Part shown: in pieces, positions 28,670-40,141 of the stretch
Numbering within the stretch: position 1 is the first letter of the stretch
Layout of the letters: every line of letters starts with the position of its first letter
Notes under the pieces: generated by a model
Seen by the model: the letters and a program-made list of their open reading frames with translations, nothing else
Databases searched by the model: none
What the model was told of the DNA's origin: nothing
From: an uncultured Bacteroidales bacterium
GTDB taxonomy: Bacteria > Bacteroidota > Bacteroidia > Bacteroidales > UBA932
NCBI GenBank assembly: GCA_947177525.1
Contig: CAMWUW010000004.1
Location: 1-64,000 of the forward strand
DNA length: 64,000 nt
Direction of reading: 5' to 3'
Position numbers and translations under genes: made by a program

Positions 28670-28799
28670 AATTTATTAAATTGGTTAATAAAAGCCCACA
28701 AAGATATGCTTTTATCACCAATGCTGCAACCGGTTTGGGGGCAAATGAGCAAGTTCATCCTGCCATAGTTCAATTTCAAAGGTATATAAATCCTGAAGC

Positions 28800-31577: not shown

Positions 31578-32003
31578 TTATATTAATTTGTTCCAGTCAG
31601 TCTTACCTGCATGCACCATTTCCTCCTTCCGTTGTGTTATAATGTAGATTTTATCGCCATCATCATCTATGTTTGTCATGAATCTACCAGAAGTACGGCT
31701 AAAATACCATGCATTCCCATCCCAATCCACAAAGTTAAGCCCCTGCGGGTCTTTTCTTTGCTCACGCTCGGCAAAATGAGCAAGCTCCTTCTGCTCTCGC
31801 TCAATCGCAAAGTTAACAGGATTTCCCGAACAATATGCATATGGGCTGATGGAATAGTATTTTTCAGCAAGCGGGTCCATGGTCGTCCAGCGGGAGGACA
31901 GAGGGTGGTAGAACCTTGAGCCGTAGTAGAGATACGGAAGGCCGGCGAACTTCTGTGATTCCTTGCCGTTGAAACGGTAGGCCTCCAATTTACGCAAAGA
32001 CAT
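31578..32003 (-). CDS. displaced RHS core fragment + short tip (cassette C)
   Basis: YRFNGKESQKFAGLPYLYYGSRFYHPLSSRWTTMDPLAEKYYSISPYAYCSGNPVNF matches the core of 36500-40141, then a 26-aa insert and a ~40-aa unrelated tip; no signal peptide. Confidence 0.8.
   Translation of the reverse strand: MSLRKLEAYRFNGKESQKFAGLPYLYYGSRFYHPLSSRWTTMDPLAEKYYSISPYAYCSGNPVNFAIEREQKELAHFAEREQRKDPQGLNFVDWDGNAWYFSRTSGRFMTNIDDDGDKIYIITQRKEEMVHAGKTDWNKLI
31730..31816. repeat. 78-bp junction repeat, copy C, with CAAAGTTAA direct repeats
   Basis: CAAAGTTAAgcccctgcgggtcttttctttgctcacgctcggcaaaatgagcaagctccttctgctctcgctcaatcgCAAAGTTAA. Confidence 0.9.
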
Positions 32004-32103
32004 GTATGATTTGAAAAGGATGCTAATCTATCATTAAAAAGCAGTGCGGACAATCATTTAGAATCACTATCAGCACTGCAACTAAATTATAACTCTTAAA
32101 ATA

Positions 32104-32583
32104 TCACCGACGCCACTTGTCTGCATGCCTCTGCCTACGTTCTTGTCTCTTACGCAACTTTGCCCTATACTTATCTACATAAGTAGAACTGTAGTTGATT
32201 GAAGGGTCTGAAGGCAGATACACTATCATTATGTTTTCACCTACCGTAAAGCTGGGATCCGAAACAGAAAAGCCCTTATAAACCAATTTGTTAACTTCGA
32301 ACCTATAGTAACGATAAGGAGTTCCTCTGGCATTCTTTGCCGCATAGACATAAGCGATTTGATTCTCACCATAAGCAGCAAGTTTATAACTATTAATAGT
32401 ATTGACTGTGACTTTATATACTATCAAACTTATCAAAGCTAAAATTAAAACATAGTCCAATCTCAACGGAATATCCCACTTCTTTTGGGAAGCCTTTGCG
32501 GCTTTTTCACGTTCGCGTTTCCGTCGGTTCTTTTCACGACGGGTCTGCTTGCGGATCTTAGCCTGATTCAATTCATTATCCAT
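32104..32583 (-). CDS. small membrane protein, candidate immunity protein of cassette B
   Basis: Highly basic N-terminus, one strong TM segment (DYVLILALISLIVYKVTV); immediately downstream of tip B. Confidence 0.45.
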   Translation of the reverse strand: MDNELNQAKIRKQTRREKNRRKREREKAAKASQKKWDIPLRLDYVLILALISLIVYKVTVNTINSYKLAAYGENQIAYVYAAKNARGTPYRYYRFEVNKLVYKGFSVSDPSFTVGENIMIVYLPSDPSINYSSTYVDKYRAKLRKRQERRQRHADKWRR

Positions 32584-32589
32584 AGCATT

Positions 32590-33195
32590 TTAATCTTTTT
32601 CTAATACCTTCTTGGATACAGAACTGGAAGTACTTCCAATAACCGTGTTGACGTTGTAATCAACTATATTATTGACAATCTGCTTCAATTCATTATCAGC
32701 ACGAGTCTTTTGGGCTATGGATTTAGCCTCCTTTGCTGAAAGGCTCTTACCATCTGCATGAGCCTTAGAGCGGGCTGACGATACAGCTGAATTTGCACTT
32801 TTTGTCTTTAGCGGTTTCACTTCTACACCTGTAGATATGCTTCCTATTGTCAGTCCGACAGCCGTATTTACTGCCGTCTCTGATACTGAATTCACATCCA
32901 AAGTCACGCCGCTGCCATTGCCGATTTCAACATCAACAGCATTACGGACCACCTCACTCACTACGGTGACTGCTACCTTGGTGGCGACTTTCTTAACGAT
33001 ATTGCCGCCGCTCGTTATAAAGCCTTCTCCAAAAGATATAGCAATGTCCCCTATATCAATGTTTGAGAATGCAGATGTGCTTACCTCTTTATCATGCACA
33101 ATATTAGCAATCACCTGACCGGTATAATCAACAGCCGCAGAAGCTATGCCGCCGACCAAATTAGCCAACAACGGGAACTCCCCATCCCAATCCAC
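32590..33195 (-). CDS. displaced RHS tip (cassette B), toxin-like C-terminal region
   Basis: Starts at the VDWDGEFPLLANLVGGIASAAVDYTGQVIANI junction; GTG start, core portion in another frame. Confidence 0.65.
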   Translation of the reverse strand: MDWDGEFPLLANLVGGIASAAVDYTGQVIANIVHDKEVSTSAFSNIDIGDIAISFGEGFITSGGNIVKKVATKVAVTVVSEVVRNAVDVEIGNGSGVTLDVNSVSETAVNTAVGLTIGSISTGVEVKPLKTKSANSAVSSARSKAHADGKSLSAKEAKSIAQKTRADNELKQIVNNIVDYNVNTVIGSTSSSVSKKVLEKD

Positions 33196-33280
33196 AAAGT
33201 TAAGCCCCTGCGGGCTTTTCTTTGCTCACACTCGGCAAAATGAGCAAGCTCATTCTGCTCTCGCTTAATCGCAAAGTTAA
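33195..33280. repeat. 78-bp junction repeat, copy B (1-bp deletion)
   Basis: Direct repeats 33195-33203 and 33272-33280; gcgggCTTTTC instead of gcgggTCTTTTC. Confidence 0.9.
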
Positions 33281-33400
33281 CAGGATTATTTGAACAGAAC
33301 GCATAAGGACTGACAGAATAATACTTTTCCGCCAGCAGGTCCATGGTCGTCCAGCGGGAGGACAGAGGGTGGTAGAACCTTGCGCCGTAATCGAGATACG
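33195..33400 (-). pseudogene. RHS core fragment (cassette B), frameshifted from its tip
   Basis: LPYLDYGARFYHPLSSRWTTMDLLAEKYYSVSPYAFCSNNPVNF in ORF 33144-33674, frame lost at the repeat deletion. Confidence 0.75.
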
Positions 33401-33477
33401 GAAGAGCGGAATTTTTCAAAAAAAATCTCCAGGCAATCGCAAGAATCACCTGGAGACATGAATTTATTTTAGCCGAA

Positions 33478-34590
33478 TCATCTTTCCATTGTCTTCGCAT
33501 ACGCTTCAACAAGAGGATAGGCATTGATGAATACCTGCGGGTCATAATCAGGCAAAGGGACATGACCTTGATCCGAAGCACGGACTTCCGACCATACGGA
33601 GTCAGCAGGCAAAGAGCACCCATGAAGACGGCAGACAAAAGATTCCGAATTTGAAAGATGGGCACGGGCCACACTACCGCTTTCGGGAATCAATGTCAAA
33701 AGATAGTCGGTCTCATTGGATCCTGGAAGAATCTCCGCCAGGACACCGTTGGAATCATAAGAGATGATGCGGCAAAGCCACTCTGGTTCGGACGGCAGTT
33801 CATAATATAAGGCATAAAAATTCTGCTTGCCGCAATAGAACGAGTCCTCGGAGAACTTTTCCAAGTTTCTCTTCTCAAAAATGTACGCAGAGCTGCCCAA
33901 AGGAAAAGGAAGATACAAAAGAGGCTCGACTATTCGAAAATTATTGGCACGGATGACATCTGGTATACCACAATAGGATTTATGACTCCTTTTCAACAAT
34001 GTACCAAAATCCCAGTACAGTTCCATAAGACGAAGTTTCAGAGGTTTATCCCGATCACGCTTATATGTTACACGGGAAGAGTAATATTCTGACAACGGAC
34101 CGGAATACAATGCCTGCCAAGCCGAGTCTAAACTGCTGTATTGCGGCCGCTCATTTATCCTGATGTACTCACGGTCGGTATGAGCAGGGTAAAAATATAA
34201 ACGACAATAGCCGGAAATATAGTCTTTGTTGTCAGTTTCATTACCCCATTCACCCGTATCCGTACGCTTATTCCTATAACTCAAATGGAAATCCGTATCT
34301 TGATACTCCGGCTTCAAGCGACAATACACCTTATTGGAATCACTGTAAACCACATTGTACAAAATTTCAGGCGGATAATAATAAGCGGAAATGTATTTTC
34401 TGTCATTGCCGTCCTCGAAAATATAAGCAGAATAACCGTCGTCTTGAAAATCAAGGCAAAACATAGGATTTGTAAATCTGAAATTCCTGTCAATGCCACC
34501 AGATGGGCACTCCAAGTACTCAGGCTCTGGAGGGGGACTGCATGAAATTACAGTGACAAGCAGAACGAAGCAAATTAAAGATCGTCTCAT
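33478..34590 (-). CDS. lipoprotein with internal duplication, candidate immunity protein of cassette A
   Basis: LLVTVISCSPPPEPE lipobox; directly downstream of the metallopeptidase tip; two similar halves (SAYIFE..Y.LPSE...I.YDSN). Confidence 0.55.
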   Translation of the reverse strand: MRRSLICFVLLVTVISCSPPPEPEYLECPSGGIDRNFRFTNPMFCLDFQDDGYSAYIFEDGNDRKYISAYYYPPEILYNVVYSDSNKVYCRLKPEYQDTDFHLSYRNKRTDTGEWGNETDNKDYISGYCRLYFYPAHTDREYIRINERPQYSSLDSAWQALYSGPLSEYYSSRVTYKRDRDKPLKLRLMELYWDFGTLLKRSHKSYCGIPDVIRANNFRIVEPLLYLPFPLGSSAYIFEKRNLEKFSEDSFYCGKQNFYALYYELPSEPEWLCRIISYDSNGVLAEILPGSNETDYLLTLIPESGSVARAHLSNSESFVCRLHGCSLPADSVWSEVRASDQGHVPLPDYDPQVFINAYPLVEAYAKTMER

Positions 34591-34598
34591 AATATTTT

Positions 34599-35159
34599 CT
34601 AAAATAAATTATTCAATAACAATAAAAGCTTTGACAGCCAATCATCCGTTCCACGGTTGGATTTGACCATTTCGTTGATGTTCTCCTGAGGAACATCTGA
34701 TGTGCGGTTTTCATCTTGCGCTTTGGTCATAATTCCCGTTTCCTTATGCTTCATTCCGAGACTATGGCCTATTTCGTGTGCACCTGTCGTGCTGCGCTCT
34801 TTTGTTCCGGGCTTGGTGACAGAATATGATTTTCTTATTGTTATATTAAATTTTTCATCAGTTTGCCCAGCAGTATTCTTAGATACTAAACCTTCATCAT
34901 TTACAATATATGTATTTGAGGTTTTATTTTCTGATTTTTCTTTAAGCCTGGTTGTTCCAAGTTCTAAAACTGACAATTCATATTTTATATTATAAACTTT
35001 TCCCGATTCATCCGTGTATGTATCTCCAGTTCTGCTGTTCCAAAAAGAAACAGCTTGTTTGGCAGACTTCATTGATTTCTCATCTGTATAATACGTCGCA
35101 GATATATAAATCGTATTTTTTCGAATCTTTCTTGTAAAATCCTCCCCATCAACATCCAC
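34599..35159 (-). CDS. displaced RHS tip (cassette A) with metzincin-type metallopeptidase motif
   Basis: TGAHEIGHSLGMKHKETGIMT = HExxHxxGxxH plus downstream Met; begins at FVDVDGEDF junction; in-frame TAG upstream in the repeat. Confidence 0.75.
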   Translation of the reverse strand: MDVDGEDFTRKIRKNTIYISATYYTDEKSMKSAKQAVSFWNSRTGDTYTDESGKVYNIKYELSVLELGTTRLKEKSENKTSNTYIVNDEGLVSKNTAGQTDEKFNITIRKSYSVTKPGTKERSTTGAHEIGHSLGMKHKETGIMTKAQDENRTSDVPQENINEMVKSNRGTDDWLSKLLLLLNNLF

Positions 35160-35245
35160 AAAGTTAAGCCCCTATGGGTCTTTTCTTTGCTCACGCTCGG
35201 CAAAATGCGCAAGTTCATTCTGCTCTCGCTTAATCGCAAAGTTAA
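35159..35245. repeat. 78-bp junction repeat, copy A (carries in-frame TAG)
   Basis: Direct repeats 35159-35167 and 35237-35245. Confidence 0.9.
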
Positions 35246-35283
35246 CAGGATTTCCCGAACAGAACGCATACGGACTGACAGAA
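35160..35283 (-). pseudogene. RHS core remnant of cassette A
   Basis: SVSPYAFCSGNPVNF nucleotide match to 37141-37190. Confidence 0.75.
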
Positions 35284-35452
35284 TTTTCGACATCGCAATA
35301 ATAGTTTTAATCAGCCTGTTATAAAAAACAAGACCGACTAAAAAAAGAATTTATAGTCGGCCTCAAACTATTTTCAAAAATCATAAGTATAAATGCCACC
35401 TCAATATACGCAGATTAAAACACAATCCTCATGCATTGAATCAGCATTATAC

Positions 35453-36499: not shown

Positions 36500-39400
36500 T
36501 TATCTCTTTTTGTTTCTTTTCACAGAAAATATCACCGGTGATATTGTGTCTGTCGTATAGTAATCATACGCATGATATCGTTTGTCATTTGGAGTAAATA
36601 TATGATACTGTTCCCATTCTGGAGTAGAAAATTTTATACCATTTTTCTCCAGATAAGATATAGTACCTATATCTCCATTCTTTTGACCTGTTCCAGAAGG
36701 AGAAGGATCGCTATTAGGATGTACGTGATCAATGCGCGTAAATACTGCTCCCTGATTAACATATTCCATAGATAGTGCTGCTGTAGGTGTTGCCTCTTTT
36801 TCACCTATCAGAACAGCATTACCTATATCTGTATATATTACAGAACTTTCCACAATAGCTTGCCTATCATTTGTATTATTATCCTTACCCCAACTTGAAG
36901 GAGTCGCTATAAACTCAAACAACTTTTTAGCAACACTTGGGTCTGAAACTGTAAAATAATCATATCCTTTCTCGCCAAGATTGAGTGTTTCTTTAGAAAG
37001 ATCTGTTTTTTTAAAGGATTTGCGGCTTATTATATCACCATTAACATCCATTGTCCTTACAACATCTCTTTTGCTTTGCTTAACCCATGATATGCTTCCA
37101 TCTTCATAAACATTCCAAATATCCATACCATCAACATCCACAAAGTTAACAGGATTTCCCGAACAGAACGCATACGGACTGACAGAATAATATTTTTCTG
37201 ACAGCGGGTCCATTGTGGTCCAGCGGGAGGACAGAGGGTGGTAGAACCTTGCGCCGTAGTCAAGATATGGAAGGCCGGCGAACTTCTGGGATTCCTTGCC
37301 GTTGAAACGGTAGGGCTGGGACGTCACACCAAGACCGTCAGGAACAGTCCCCGAACCGGTTGCGCCATCAGAAACGCCTGACTGTACAGAAGCCACGACA
37401 TCAGCATCGGCAGTCGCGCCATCCGGAAACTCCACACCATAAGGATAGTAGTCATAAGTCTCCAGCACATTGCCATCGGAGTCGGCAACAGCACGGACAC
37501 TGCCAAGGTGGTCACTCATGAAGAAACAATAGCTGCCGTCCTTTATATAGCCACCGGGAACCAGAACCCGCTCCACAGAACCGTCGCAGTACACCACGCT
37601 CGAAGCATAGTCCGTGACAGAGGATGAACCACCGGGGCCGGAGACGCTCACGCGGAGCTTCACACCCTCCGGACTGTACAGGTAACGGATGTTATGAACG
37701 CCGCCAGAAGAGACACAAATCAGATCCTCGGGAAGGTTCATGCGGTTGTAGGACATCACAGTCAGACCGCTGTTGAGGTCGCGCGTCATGTTACCGTTCG
37801 CATCGTAGGCGTACTGCGTCATGCCGGAAGGGACACTCCCGGCAAGAAAGTCGGGTATCATACTGCCGCCGTGGTCAGACATCGCCTGGAGCCGGTTGCC
37901 GCCATAAGCCATCATCAGATCGTCACTATCTTCAGGGAACGCTCCCCTCTCACGCGCCACGGAAAGCACATTCCCATGGCCGTCATAAGAATACGACGTA
38001 CCGTAACCGGAAGCCGGACGGCCGTCAAGAAGCCATTCAGCGCCGGTAACACGACCAAGGCCGTCATAGGAGTAGCCGTAGCCCTTGCCAGCACCGCCGG
38101 AGAAAGACCACACGGCGGAAGAAATGCTGCCGTTGAACTGCGGAGACGAAGACGAGCCGGAGACGACGGGATCATCATAGTACAGTTTCTCGCTGAAAAC
38201 ACCGCTTGACACGCCTGTCTGCCACGAACGGATGTTGTAGGCATAATCCGTACGCATAGGCTCCGCACCGTTGCGGCCGTCAGAGGACAGGCGGCCCAGA
38301 TTGTCATAGCTGTTGTCCGCAAGGACCGTCTCCGGGCCGCTGCCAAGCCGGTGGGTAATCTTCAGAGGGCGCTCCATGTTGTCATAAGTATAGGTATAAC
38401 GCTCAACCAATGGCTTGCCAAGGACAGCCGGGTCAGGACGGGAGTCACCTGATGCGGAAGACACGGAGCCCACGGTATGCGACAGGGTACGCTTCAACGG
38501 CTGACCGGTGAAAGAATACCACGTCTTCTCACTATCCCAGCCTCCCAAGTGGTTCATAGAATGCGACTGGATCACCAGGCCGCGGTCGTCATAATAGCAG
38601 GAAGAATACAGGGCGTCGCGCATATCACCAACGGTCCACGCCACACGGCCCGTCACACGGGAACTGCCGTAACGGTCATACTCCGTCGTAACGACAGGCC
38701 GCTTCAGTACCGGAAGGGGAACCGGAGTGAGGGTAACGCTATCCTTTATAAGAGGAACGAGTGTACTGTCCTTTATAGGAGGAAGGAGCGTGCTGTCCTT
38801 CACCGGAGGAAAGGGAGCCACAGGAGGGTTCACAATCACAGGCTTCAGCACATACGCGCGAAGGCTGTCACGGCAGGACTCAGGCGCGAGGGAGATGAAG
38901 TCATAATTGTCATAATACGTGACATCAACAAGCTCGGAGCCAGAAGGAAGCGAAGGGCTCAGGACATAGCCGCAGGCAGATCCGTCCTCTCCTGCATAAG
39001 AAGCCGTGAACTCAGTTCCAGACACATCGCCGGAATAAGGCAGAGGACCGCAAGCACTCACGCAGGGGCGCCCGAGGCCGTCATACCAGATGGACGTCCA
39101 CTCACCCGACATGGCCTGGTTACCGTCCTGGCTGAGGACCGGACGCCGGTGGACATCATACTGCATCGTTACGGGAGAACACCCGGGGAGACGCTTCCAG
39201 ATACACTCGCCTAAGCCATCGTAACGATAGACATAAGCGTAGGACTTCATAGCAGAATCATCATCCGATGCGGCGGACACGTCCGCAAGAGCGTCAGACA
39301 GCAGAGGAGGAAGGACATAGCGCAGGCGGCCGAGCACATCATACACATAGTACGTGTCAAGAGCCCTCTCCACTCCGTCCTCGGACAACCAGCGGCGTTC

Positions 39401-40141
39401 AAGGACAGTGTTGCCGGAATAGTCGGTATACACGTCAACGGTGCCGTCACGGCCGGATACCCAGTTCTCCCCCATGAGAGTCTGGCGCACGAGACGTCCG
39501 GGAAGATAGTCTCCGGAAGAGGAGATTCCGCCGGAAGTCACCTTCCACAGCCTCACCACGTCATCGCCGGAAGATGAGCAGGTGCCGTACCCGTAGGCCT
39601 GCGTGCGGCCTGAAGTGTCAGTGCGCTGAGAGGAAGGCTGCCACACCTCACCTGGAAAGCCCTGCTCCAGGACACGGTCAAGCGTGCTGTTACCATAGAC
39701 AGTAACAGACCATGGGGCCGAATCGGGAGACATCCCGGTCAGGGAACCGTCACGGTAGAACTCAGCCGTGGCCGCACCGGCACCGTCACGAAAGCCCTGA
39801 CCTGATCCGCCAGCCAGGTCTGCATAAGGCAGGAAGATCTTGCTCTCACGCATATAACGGTCGTATTCCTTGTGCAGCACAAGGTCGTGCGCTCCGCCTC
39901 CCACGGCACCGACAGAGACCGTCTGGGAAGGAAAGCCAAGGCCGTCGTAATAGCTTACCGTCCTCATCGCACCCTCGGACGGCAGGGCGTTCACCGCAGC
40001 GGTGTCCTTCGCTCCGGAAACGCGCACCACAGTGCCGACTACAAAATTGTGACTATAGTCAGGGCCGGATTGGGCATATATATTTGTCAGATGGCATACT
40101 AATATTGCCAGGACTGACATGGATTTATATATCGTTTTCAT
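36500..40141 (-). CDS. full-length RHS repeat protein with JAB/MPN-like C-terminal tip
   Basis: Signal peptide; many YD repeats; YDYYPYG..YRFNGKESQKFAGLPYLDYGARFYHP core; C-terminal RIDHVHPNSDPSPSGTGQKNGDIGTI. Confidence 0.88.
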   Translation of the reverse strand: MKTIYKSMSVLAILVCHLTNIYAQSGPDYSHNFVVGTVVRVSGAKDTAAVNALPSEGAMRTVSYYDGLGFPSQTVSVGAVGGGAHDLVLHKEYDRYMRESKIFLPYADLAGGSGQGFRDGAGAATAEFYRDGSLTGMSPDSAPWSVTVYGNSTLDRVLEQGFPGEVWQPSSQRTDTSGRTQAYGYGTCSSSGDDVVRLWKVTSGGISSSGDYLPGRLVRQTLMGENWVSGRDGTVDVYTDYSGNTVLERRWLSEDGVERALDTYYVYDVLGRLRYVLPPLLSDALADVSAASDDDSAMKSYAYVYRYDGLGECIWKRLPGCSPVTMQYDVHRRPVLSQDGNQAMSGEWTSIWYDGLGRPCVSACGPLPYSGDVSGTEFTASYAGEDGSACGYVLSPSLPSGSELVDVTYYDNYDFISLAPESCRDSLRAYVLKPVIVNPPVAPFPPVKDSTLLPPIKDSTLVPLIKDSVTLTPVPLPVLKRPVVTTEYDRYGSSRVTGRVAWTVGDMRDALYSSCYYDDRGLVIQSHSMNHLGGWDSEKTWYSFTGQPLKRTLSHTVGSVSSASGDSRPDPAVLGKPLVERYTYTYDNMERPLKITHRLGSGPETVLADNSYDNLGRLSSDGRNGAEPMRTDYAYNIRSWQTGVSSGVFSEKLYYDDPVVSGSSSSPQFNGSISSAVWSFSGGAGKGYGYSYDGLGRVTGAEWLLDGRPASGYGTSYSYDGHGNVLSVARERGAFPEDSDDLMMAYGGNRLQAMSDHGGSMIPDFLAGSVPSGMTQYAYDANGNMTRDLNSGLTVMSYNRMNLPEDLICVSSGGVHNIRYLYSPEGVKLRVSVSGPGGSSSVTDYASSVVYCDGSVERVLVPGGYIKDGSYCFFMSDHLGSVRAVADSDGNVLETYDYYPYGVEFPDGATADADVVASVQSGVSDGATGSGTVPDGLGVTSQPYRFNGKESQKFAGLPYLDYGARFYHPLSSRWTTMDPLSEKYYSVSPYAFCSGNPVNFVDVDGMDIWNVYEDGSISWVKQSKRDVVRTMDVNGDIISRKSFKKTDLSKETLNLGEKGYDYFTVSDPSVAKKLFEFIATPSSWGKDNNTNDRQAIVESSVIYTDIGNAVLIGEKEATPTAALSMEYVNQGAVFTRIDHVHPNSDPSPSGTGQKNGDIGTISYLEKNGIKFSTPEWEQYHIFTPNDKRYHAYDYYTTDTISPVIFSVKRNKKR
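38737..38820 (-). repeat. 27-bp tandem repeat (9 aa, KDST/proline-rich linker)
   Basis: PPVKDSTLL-PPIKDSTLV-PLIKDSVTL. Confidence 0.75.

What the first reader, a model, noticed from the sequence alone, without database searches (positions are those of the whole stretch)
31730..35245. 78-bp repeat with 9-bp direct repeats at the exact core/tip junction of three displaced RHS cassettes
Copies at 31730-31816, 33195-33280 and 35159-35245 each sit between two CAAAGTTAA repeats. The intact RHS gene has a single uninterrupted CAAAGTTAA at 37141-37149. Unit length is 78 bp (26 codons) in A and C and 77 bp in B. It splits the conserved 'NPVNF|VDxDG' core/tip boundary. In C it stays open (AIEREQKELAHFAEREQRKDPQGL); A carries an in-frame TAG and B a 1-bp deletion, so two of three would cut the tip off from its core. 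The element has internal inverted segments (TTGCTCA/TGAGCAA and CTTTGC/GCAAAG). Inference: a mini mobile repeat that targets this site, or a tag marking shelved tips. Crossover in the ~22 bp shared distal to it (TTAACTTTGTGGATGTTGATGG, main vs A) would restore a functional fusion without it.
Basis: partly seen in the sequence, partly recalled or inferred. Interest (0 to 1): 0.8.

Follow-up and report, generated by a model that had tools for sequence, protein, structure and literature searches.

The report
Promoter-box DNA repeat inside Rhs genes
The 78-base insert found in three spare toxin-tip genes is one copy of a hairpin-forming repeat scattered through many Bacteroidales genomes, which normally sits against gene promoters and here landed in a coding sequence that happens to look like a promoter box.

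Summary
The repeat is real. Three 77-78 bp units sit between CAAAGTTAA boxes at the core/tip junction of three displaced RHS cassettes, and the full-length gene is empty.

It is not RHS-specific. A 77-bp tandem array of the same unit lies in the gyrA promoter of this genome. A structure model finds 12-31 related units in each of five repeat-rich genomes and hits in 16 of 150 Bacteroidales genera. Helices P1, P3 and P4 vary but stay paired. Units are often tandem and have no terminal inverted repeats.

At gyrA, parA and recQ, relatives lacking the unit keep one sigma-ABfr -7 box (TAnnTTTG) where this genome has units against that box. The '9-bp target repeat' is such a box: the RHS codons GTT AAC TTT G contain TAACTTTG by coincidence. 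In this clade 7/7 displaced junctions are filled and 2/2 full-length genes empty; about 38 other genus junctions are empty, so the insert is derived.

Best reading: a promoter-box-seeking structured repeat landed in silent cassettes and spread with them by recombination, not a dedicated shelving tag. The mobilising enzyme is unknown; Y1/RAYT dependence is not supported. I found no earlier description of the family.

The parts
31730..31816 (-). Unit A with both boxes: box 31808-31816, unit body 31739-31807, box 31730-31738 (TTAACTTTG on the - strand). Reads through in frame (open).
31807..31812 (-). Unit A helix P1, 5' arm CTTTGC (box plus first unit base)
   Evidence: consensus structure
31756..31761 (-). 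Unit A helix P1, 3' arm GCAAAG inside the unit, complementary to the box
31773..31792 (-). Unit A hairpin P3 (AGAAGGAGC TT GCTCATTTT), flanked by the conserved GAGAGC / GCCGAG tandem G-A motif
31737..31753 (-). Unit A hairpin P4 (AAG(A)CCC GCA GGGGCTT)
   Evidence: P4 statistics
33195..33280 (-). Unit B with both boxes (77-bp period; frameshifts the core/tip join)
35159..35245 (-). Unit C with both boxes (in-frame TAG in the unit)
37141..37149 (-). Empty site: single TTAACTTTG in the full-length RHS gene
36500..40141 (-). Full-length RHS gene (1213 aa, DUF6443), no unit
31578..32003 (-). Displaced cassette A: core fragment, unit and tip in one open frame
33281..33416 (-). Displaced cassette B: core fragment upstream of unit B
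32590..33195 (-). Displaced cassette B tip; a homologous tip in a relative (L050) is joined to its core without a unit
35235..35285 (-). Displaced cassette C: short core remnant upstream of unit C
34599..35159 (-). Displaced cassette C tip (weak matrixin-like metallopeptidase match)

Best explanation
The insert is one member of a Bacteroidales family of small (about 68-80 bp), hairpin-rich, tandem-prone interspersed repeats. A unit has three helices: P1 (about 6 bp, box against an internal segment), P3 and P4. It sits directly against a sigma-ABfr -7 box (TAnnTTTG, either orientation), and the box often recurs at its other end. One unit landed in a displaced RHS cassette because the codons GTT AAC TTT G of the NPVNF junction contain TAACTTTG, the same box at which a related unit sits in the gyrA promoter. 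Shown: family membership, the shared box, derived status, tandem copies. Inferred: recombination between core fragments then spread the unit to the other displaced cassettes. There it is tolerated because they are silent, while full-length genes stay empty because a 77-bp insert or a stop would disconnect the tip. The insertion chemistry is unknown. A plausible but unproven route is pairing of the internal P1 arm with the box in single-stranded (melted promoter or lagging-strand) DNA, with tandem growth and loss by slippage between boxes.
For: (1) Same unit as a 2.2-copy 77-bp array between clpC-like and gyrA. (2) Structure model: 83% of cells paired, 16/20 pairs with two-sided changes, covariation 0.489 vs 0.197 shuffled (0/500); slid controls pair 27-44%. 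(3) Model hits: 24 own, 27, 22, 31 and 12 in four other genomes; 16/150 genera; many tandem at 76-92 nt. (4) Direct repeat of at least 7 nt across the unit in 53% vs 2.9% control; CAAAnnTA exactly at the 5' end in 20/68, background 0.0004 per position. (5) Empty/filled pairs: gyrA box in relatives; recQ and parA boxes; the same RHS tip with and without the unit in the sister genome, differing at the junction only by 77 nt. (6) 2/2 full-length RHS empty, 7/7 displaced filled; about 38 other junctions empty. (7) Units 87-99% identical across RHS cassettes while core flanks are 75-94% among distinct cassettes. (8) Three tandem units in L013.
Against: No insertion event was observed. For units with the box in reverse orientation the box may belong to the unit rather than the host, because relatives differ by a base or two. 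At polA the unit lies just downstream of the -7 box and the direct repeat is unclear. The AACCGACGC class has no TAnnTTTG box. Hits within a genome share ancestry, so box counts are not independent. Covariation could come from quasipalindrome correction rather than selection. All genomes are draft assemblies.
Confidence: 0.78

Rival explanations
1. A dedicated RHS shelving element: the unit is placed at the core/tip junction to keep spare tips off, and is removed when a tip is moved into the full-length gene.
For: Perfect split in this clade (7 displaced filled, 2 full-length empty). In the sister genome the same tip is in use without the unit and stored with it, with identical sequence next to the junction. 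9-bp direct repeats around a hairpin would favour precise loss.
Against: The family is mostly between unrelated genes, often at promoters. Displaced cassettes of other genus members, including a homologue of tip B, have none. Cassette A is in frame through the unit. The 9 junctions share ancestry.
Confidence: 0.08
2. The unit is non-autonomous REP-like DNA mobilised by a Y1 (RAYT/IS200-type) transposase acting on single-stranded hairpins.
For: Hairpins with mismatches; an internal arm complementary to the flanking box recalls IS200/IS605 guides; Y1 genes exist in some of these genomes.
Against: Genomes with many units and 99% completeness (G274, 31 units; G469; G601) have no Y1 hit. None of 13 Y1 loci has a unit in its flank of up to 1.5 kb. 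The paired arm lies 3' of the hairpin, unlike IS608 guides (own knowledge).
Confidence: 0.12
3. A conserved structured RNA (leader or regulatory element) kept by selection, not a mobile repeat.
For: Strong compensatory change in P1 and P3; at gyrA and parA the unit lies in the 5' leader in the sense direction.
Against: Units occur in both orientations relative to neighbouring genes, are absent at the same genes in relatives, vary in number and occur inside RHS coding sequence. No Rfam match. Class R units are upstream of the gene's -7 box.
Confidence: 0.1
4. Plain microhomology: a tandem unit that contains TTAACTTTG recombined once with the identical 9 bp in RHS; there is no target mechanism.
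For: Box nearly identical at RHS and gyrA; arrays could give excised single units; only this clade has TTAACTTTG at the junction.
Against: Different boxes (TAACTTTG, TAAATTTG, TACATTTG, TATATTTG) are each matched by the unit's own internal arm, and box positions agree with native promoters in relatives.
Confidence: 0.2

Closest known systems
BrickBuilt MITE of Porphyromonas gingivalis (PMC4596501)
   Same: Bacteroidales; intergenic; tandem repeats inside a small dispersed element; promoter activity shown
   Different: 23-nt repeat between leader and tail with terminal inverted repeats like IS5 elements; our units have no terminal inverted repeats, a 76-92-nt period, three helices and a -7 box boundary
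BOX elements of Streptococcus pneumoniae (PMC3049150)
   Same: Interspersed, strongly structured, with variable-number internal modules; insertions also near and in genes
   Different: boxA/B/C modular make-up with terminal inverted repeats; different phylum and sequence; no promoter-box boundary known to me
REP/BIME/REPIN with RAYT (PMC2817692, PMC3733652)
   Same: Many short hairpin repeats per genome, mostly intergenic
   Different: REPs are 20-40 bp palindromes tagged GTAG or CGTC and linked to a RAYT gene; no such link here
Rickettsia palindromic elements (review PMC10969869)
   Same: A dispersed repeat that inserts inside protein-coding genes, sometimes in frame
   Different: About 150 bp palindromes mostly kept in frame in many genes; here only one coding locus is known and 2 of 3 window copies break the frame
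MIRU of mycobacteria (own knowledge, not read here)
   Same: Unit near 77 bp, tandem and dispersed, variable copy number
   Different: Actinobacterial, different sequence and target, no comparable three-helix structure known to me
Standalone toxin cassettes of polymorphic toxin loci (PMC3482391, PMC3150448)
   Same: The host locus is an ordinary RHS locus with spare tip cassettes that recombine with the full-length gene
   Different: A repeat unit at the core/tip join is not mentioned in the passages read of PMC3482391; PMC3150448 was not opened

Membership tests
MITE (transposase-dependent) | Terminal inverted repeats | tested here: not met
   Terminal 18 nt versus reverse complement: longest shared stretch 3 nt, reached by 93% or more of shuffles
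MITE (transposase-dependent) | Target-site duplication | tested here: inconclusive
   Box repeated on both sides at RHS and recQ; 53% of units have a repeat of 7 nt or more vs 2.9% control; in some classes the box could be part of the unit
REP/RAYT | Associated Y1 transposase gene | tested here: not met
   No Y1 in G274, G469, G601, G468; no units in the flanks of 13 Y1 loci
REP/RAYT | 20-40 bp palindrome with GTAG or CGTC tag | tested here: not met
   Unit is 68-80 nt with three helices; no tag seen in the RHS/gyrA units
BrickBuilt | 23-nt tandem unit with consensus AGAYCATARTATCCTCTCRTRTG | tested here: not met
   Our period is 76-92 nt and the sequences are unrelated by eye (consensus)
Known structured RNA family (Rfam 15) | Match to a covariance model | tested here: not met
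   No match up to E 0.5 on six unit-bearing loci; only a tRNA in the window
Interspersed structured tandem-prone repeats (broad kind) | Multi-copy, dispersed, conserved fold, variable copy number | tested here: met
Integron attC site | Integrase partner and cassette borders in an array | not tested
   Integrase was not searched; units lie in tandem without genes between them, which speaks against it
RHS polymorphic toxin locus (host) | Full-length RHS gene followed by displaced core-fragment plus tip cassettes | tested here: met

The most novel reading that the evidence does not exclude
A family of non-coding repeats whose internal 6-nt arm acts as a guide that pairs with, and so selects, melted -7 promoter boxes. 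It inserts there in either orientation, can supply a new promoter, and is retargeted when guide and box change together; the RHS junction would be an off-target hit in coding DNA.
Probability: 0.22. Interest if true: 0.85.

Novelty: new variant of a known kind. Interest (0 to 1): 0.6.

Why it matters
It turns a puzzling RHS insert into an entry point to a repeat family spread over many Bacteroidales, with a target rule (sigma-ABfr -7 boxes) that can be tested directly. If units really move to promoters and carry a -33 box 20 nt from the -7 box, they are a source of promoter change in a major gut order. If the box-guide pairing drives insertion, it is a new way for a tiny non-coding element to choose its target. 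It also shows how such a repeat can break or re-space effector genes by hitting a promoter-like codon string.

Tried and rejected
RHS-specific repeat: rejected by the gyrA array and the family search. Ordinary core sequence: rejected, about 38 other genus junctions empty. In-frame peptide repeat: rejected, most RHS units checked break the frame or carry a stop, and gyrA units are non-coding. Phage or plasmid cargo: no match in phages or IMG/VR; one weak 41-nt plasmid hit in Kosakonia taken as chance. Y1/RAYT partner: not supported. Rfam family: none. Strand judged by G-U versus A-C pairs: 56 vs 31, not decisive. General orientation bias to genes: none clear for the whole family, though class R units have a divergent 5' gene in 17 of 23. 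The unit as promoter of the shelved tip: no TTTG -33 box at 19-21 nt before TAACTTTG in the RHS units, read by eye. Literature: seven searches found no description of the family, but only open PMC papers were searched. Early exact-pattern scans gave only two genomes because the family is diverged; the structure model was needed.
Full report
WHAT IS THERE. On the minus strand of the window a full-length RHS gene (36500-40141, 1213 aa) is followed by displaced cassettes made of a short core fragment and a different tip. Three of these cassettes carry a 77-78 bp unit exactly between NPVNF and VDxDG, with TTAACTTTG on both sides. The full-length gene has one TTAACTTTG and no unit.

NOT CONFINED TO RHS. 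A BLAST of the unit against the whole genome gave five places: the three RHS copies and two tandem copies on another contig, between a clpC-like gene and gyrA. That array has 2.2 copies of 77 bp and starts at TAACTTTG. Exact-type copies were absent from 100 genus and 299 family genomes. A scan of 85,462 species genomes found one more, an uncultured Bacteroidales MAG (SRR14411270_bin.2, here G468). Its exact-type copies again sit at RHS core/tip junctions of displaced cassettes, one with three tandem units.

THE FAMILY. A sequence model and then a structure model revealed diverged relatives. Read 5' to 3': box, P1a (about 6 nt), GATTAAGC, GAGAGC, hairpin P3, GCCGAGCG, P1b (complement of P1a), AAAAG, hairpin P4, box. 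P1 pairs seen include CTTTGC:GCAAAG (RHS, gyrA), ATTTGC:GCAAAT (parA), CATTGC:GCAATG, CCTCCC:GGGAGG, and ATCTTC:GAAGAT followed by TGTTCC:GGAACA in two adjacent tandem units. On 17 diverse sequences 83% of cells pair, 16 of 20 pairs have two-sided changes, and no shuffle reaches the observed values; sliding the partners drops pairing to 27-44%. P4 stems average 5.1 bp against 3.1 in shuffles and close most often on GAA or AAA loops. The model finds 24 units in the own genome, 27, 22 and 31 in three congeners and 12 in G468. In an order-wide sample 19 of 198 genomes and 16 of 150 genera have hits at E 0.001 under strict filters. Many hits are tandem at 76-92 nt.

THE BOX. Sigma-ABfr promoters have TAnnTTTG at -7 and TTTG near -33 (PMC7366714). 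Among 68 units, CAAAnnTA (the box reversed) starts exactly at the unit's 5' end in 20, and TAnnTTTG starts one base in for 5, against a background of 0.0004 per position. Direct repeats of 7 nt or more span the unit in 53% against 2.9% in controls. Of 24 units with the reversed box, 17-18 carry TTTG at 20-21 nt, mostly exactly 20, from the box, so unit plus box makes a complete promoter pointing away from the unit's 5' end. These counts include related copies and are not independent.

EMPTY SITES. gyrA: eight relatives (L250-L257) have one promoter box where this genome has the array; most read TAACTTTGC, G468 reads TACCTTTGC and L255 TATCTTTGC. parA: the relative G039 has TAAATTTGCG, identical to the unit's box, and the unit's internal arm is GCAAAT rather than GCAAAG. 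recQ: G039 has one TACTTTTGTG, this genome has TACATTTGT on both sides of the unit. polA: the unit lies just downstream of the -7 box, with an unclear repeat. In G274, units near lpxK, hisS and two other genes abut boxes that have counterparts in G039; there the box could belong to either partner, and at a further locus (L195) no counterpart promoter was seen. TAACTTTG occurs only about 25 times per Mb on both strands, so sharing it at RHS and gyrA is unlikely by chance.

WHY RHS. The junction codons GTT AAC TTT G spell TAACTTTG in this clade. Nearly all other genus junctions use GTG AAT or similar and lack the TA. The insert is derived: the other genus junctions read, including displaced cassettes of G039 and a homologue of tip B, are empty. 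In the two genomes that have it, 7 of 7 displaced junctions are filled and 2 of 2 full-length genes empty. In G468 the same tip exists in use and in store, with identical sequence on both sides of the junction and exactly the 77-nt unit as the difference. Units are 87-99% identical across cassettes while core flanks are 75-94% among distinct cassettes, so the unit moved among core haplotypes after they diverged. Recombination in the shared core is the simplest route (inference).

HOW IT PROBABLY WORKS. Shown: dispersal, conserved fold, box boundary, tandem growth, empty/filled pairs. Inferred: insertion or recombination at the box, tolerance in silent cassettes, purging from full-length genes. 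Unknown: the enzyme. Y1 transposases are absent from several unit-rich, nearly complete genomes, and none of the Y1 loci examined is flanked by units. The match between internal arm and host box suggests guide pairing, but quasipalindrome correction or microhomology could give the same pattern.

NOVELTY. The kind (small structured interspersed repeat) is known: BOX, REP, MIRU, RPE, BrickBuilt. Terminal inverted repeats, RAYT link, Rfam match and the BrickBuilt unit were tested and not met. No paper describing this family was found in the open PMC library; subscription papers were not searchable.

LIMITS. Draft metagenome assemblies; genes called from open frames only, with gyrA, parA, recQ, polA, lpxK and hisS named from their start sequences by eye; genome names withheld except the G468 record; related hits not independent; the AACCGACGC class lacks the box.

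Noticed in passing
window 28742-28784 (-): Weak, probably decayed relative of the unit beside a TACCTTTG box, between the SusC-like gene and a WG-repeat gene (R1 model, E 0.04).
   Followed up: no
G000:C10:1-200 and G000:C138:2870-3024 (L169, L172): Both contigs end inside what looks like the same tandem array next to parA; in relative G039 the neighbouring genes lie on one contig, so the array probably broke the assembly.
   Followed up: partly
G468:C67:416-497 (L073/L248): A unit whose RHS core side is replaced by unrelated sequence and whose tip side is decayed: a likely recombination scar inside the unit.
   Followed up: no
L184:2017-2175 (G274): Two adjacent units with different P1 pairs (ATCTTC:GAAGAT, then TGTTCC:GGAACA), each perfectly complementary.
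   Followed up: partly
L112:1900-2330 (G000:C43): A tandem array with ACGCGCACA motifs directly upstream of a 315-aa Y1 transposase gene: perhaps a separate REP-like system.
   Followed up: no
L083, L092, L106, L205, L208: Several units sit after a shared GTGCCACCCTCGGCATCAT-like sequence in different genomes: maybe a second repeat or a preferred context.
   Followed up: no
window 34599-35159 (-): Tip of cassette C has a weak matrixin/M43-like metallopeptidase match.
   Followed up: no
G000:C53:9796-9996: A second, distinct RHS gene in the same genome (58% identical core end) with an empty junction.
   Followed up: partly
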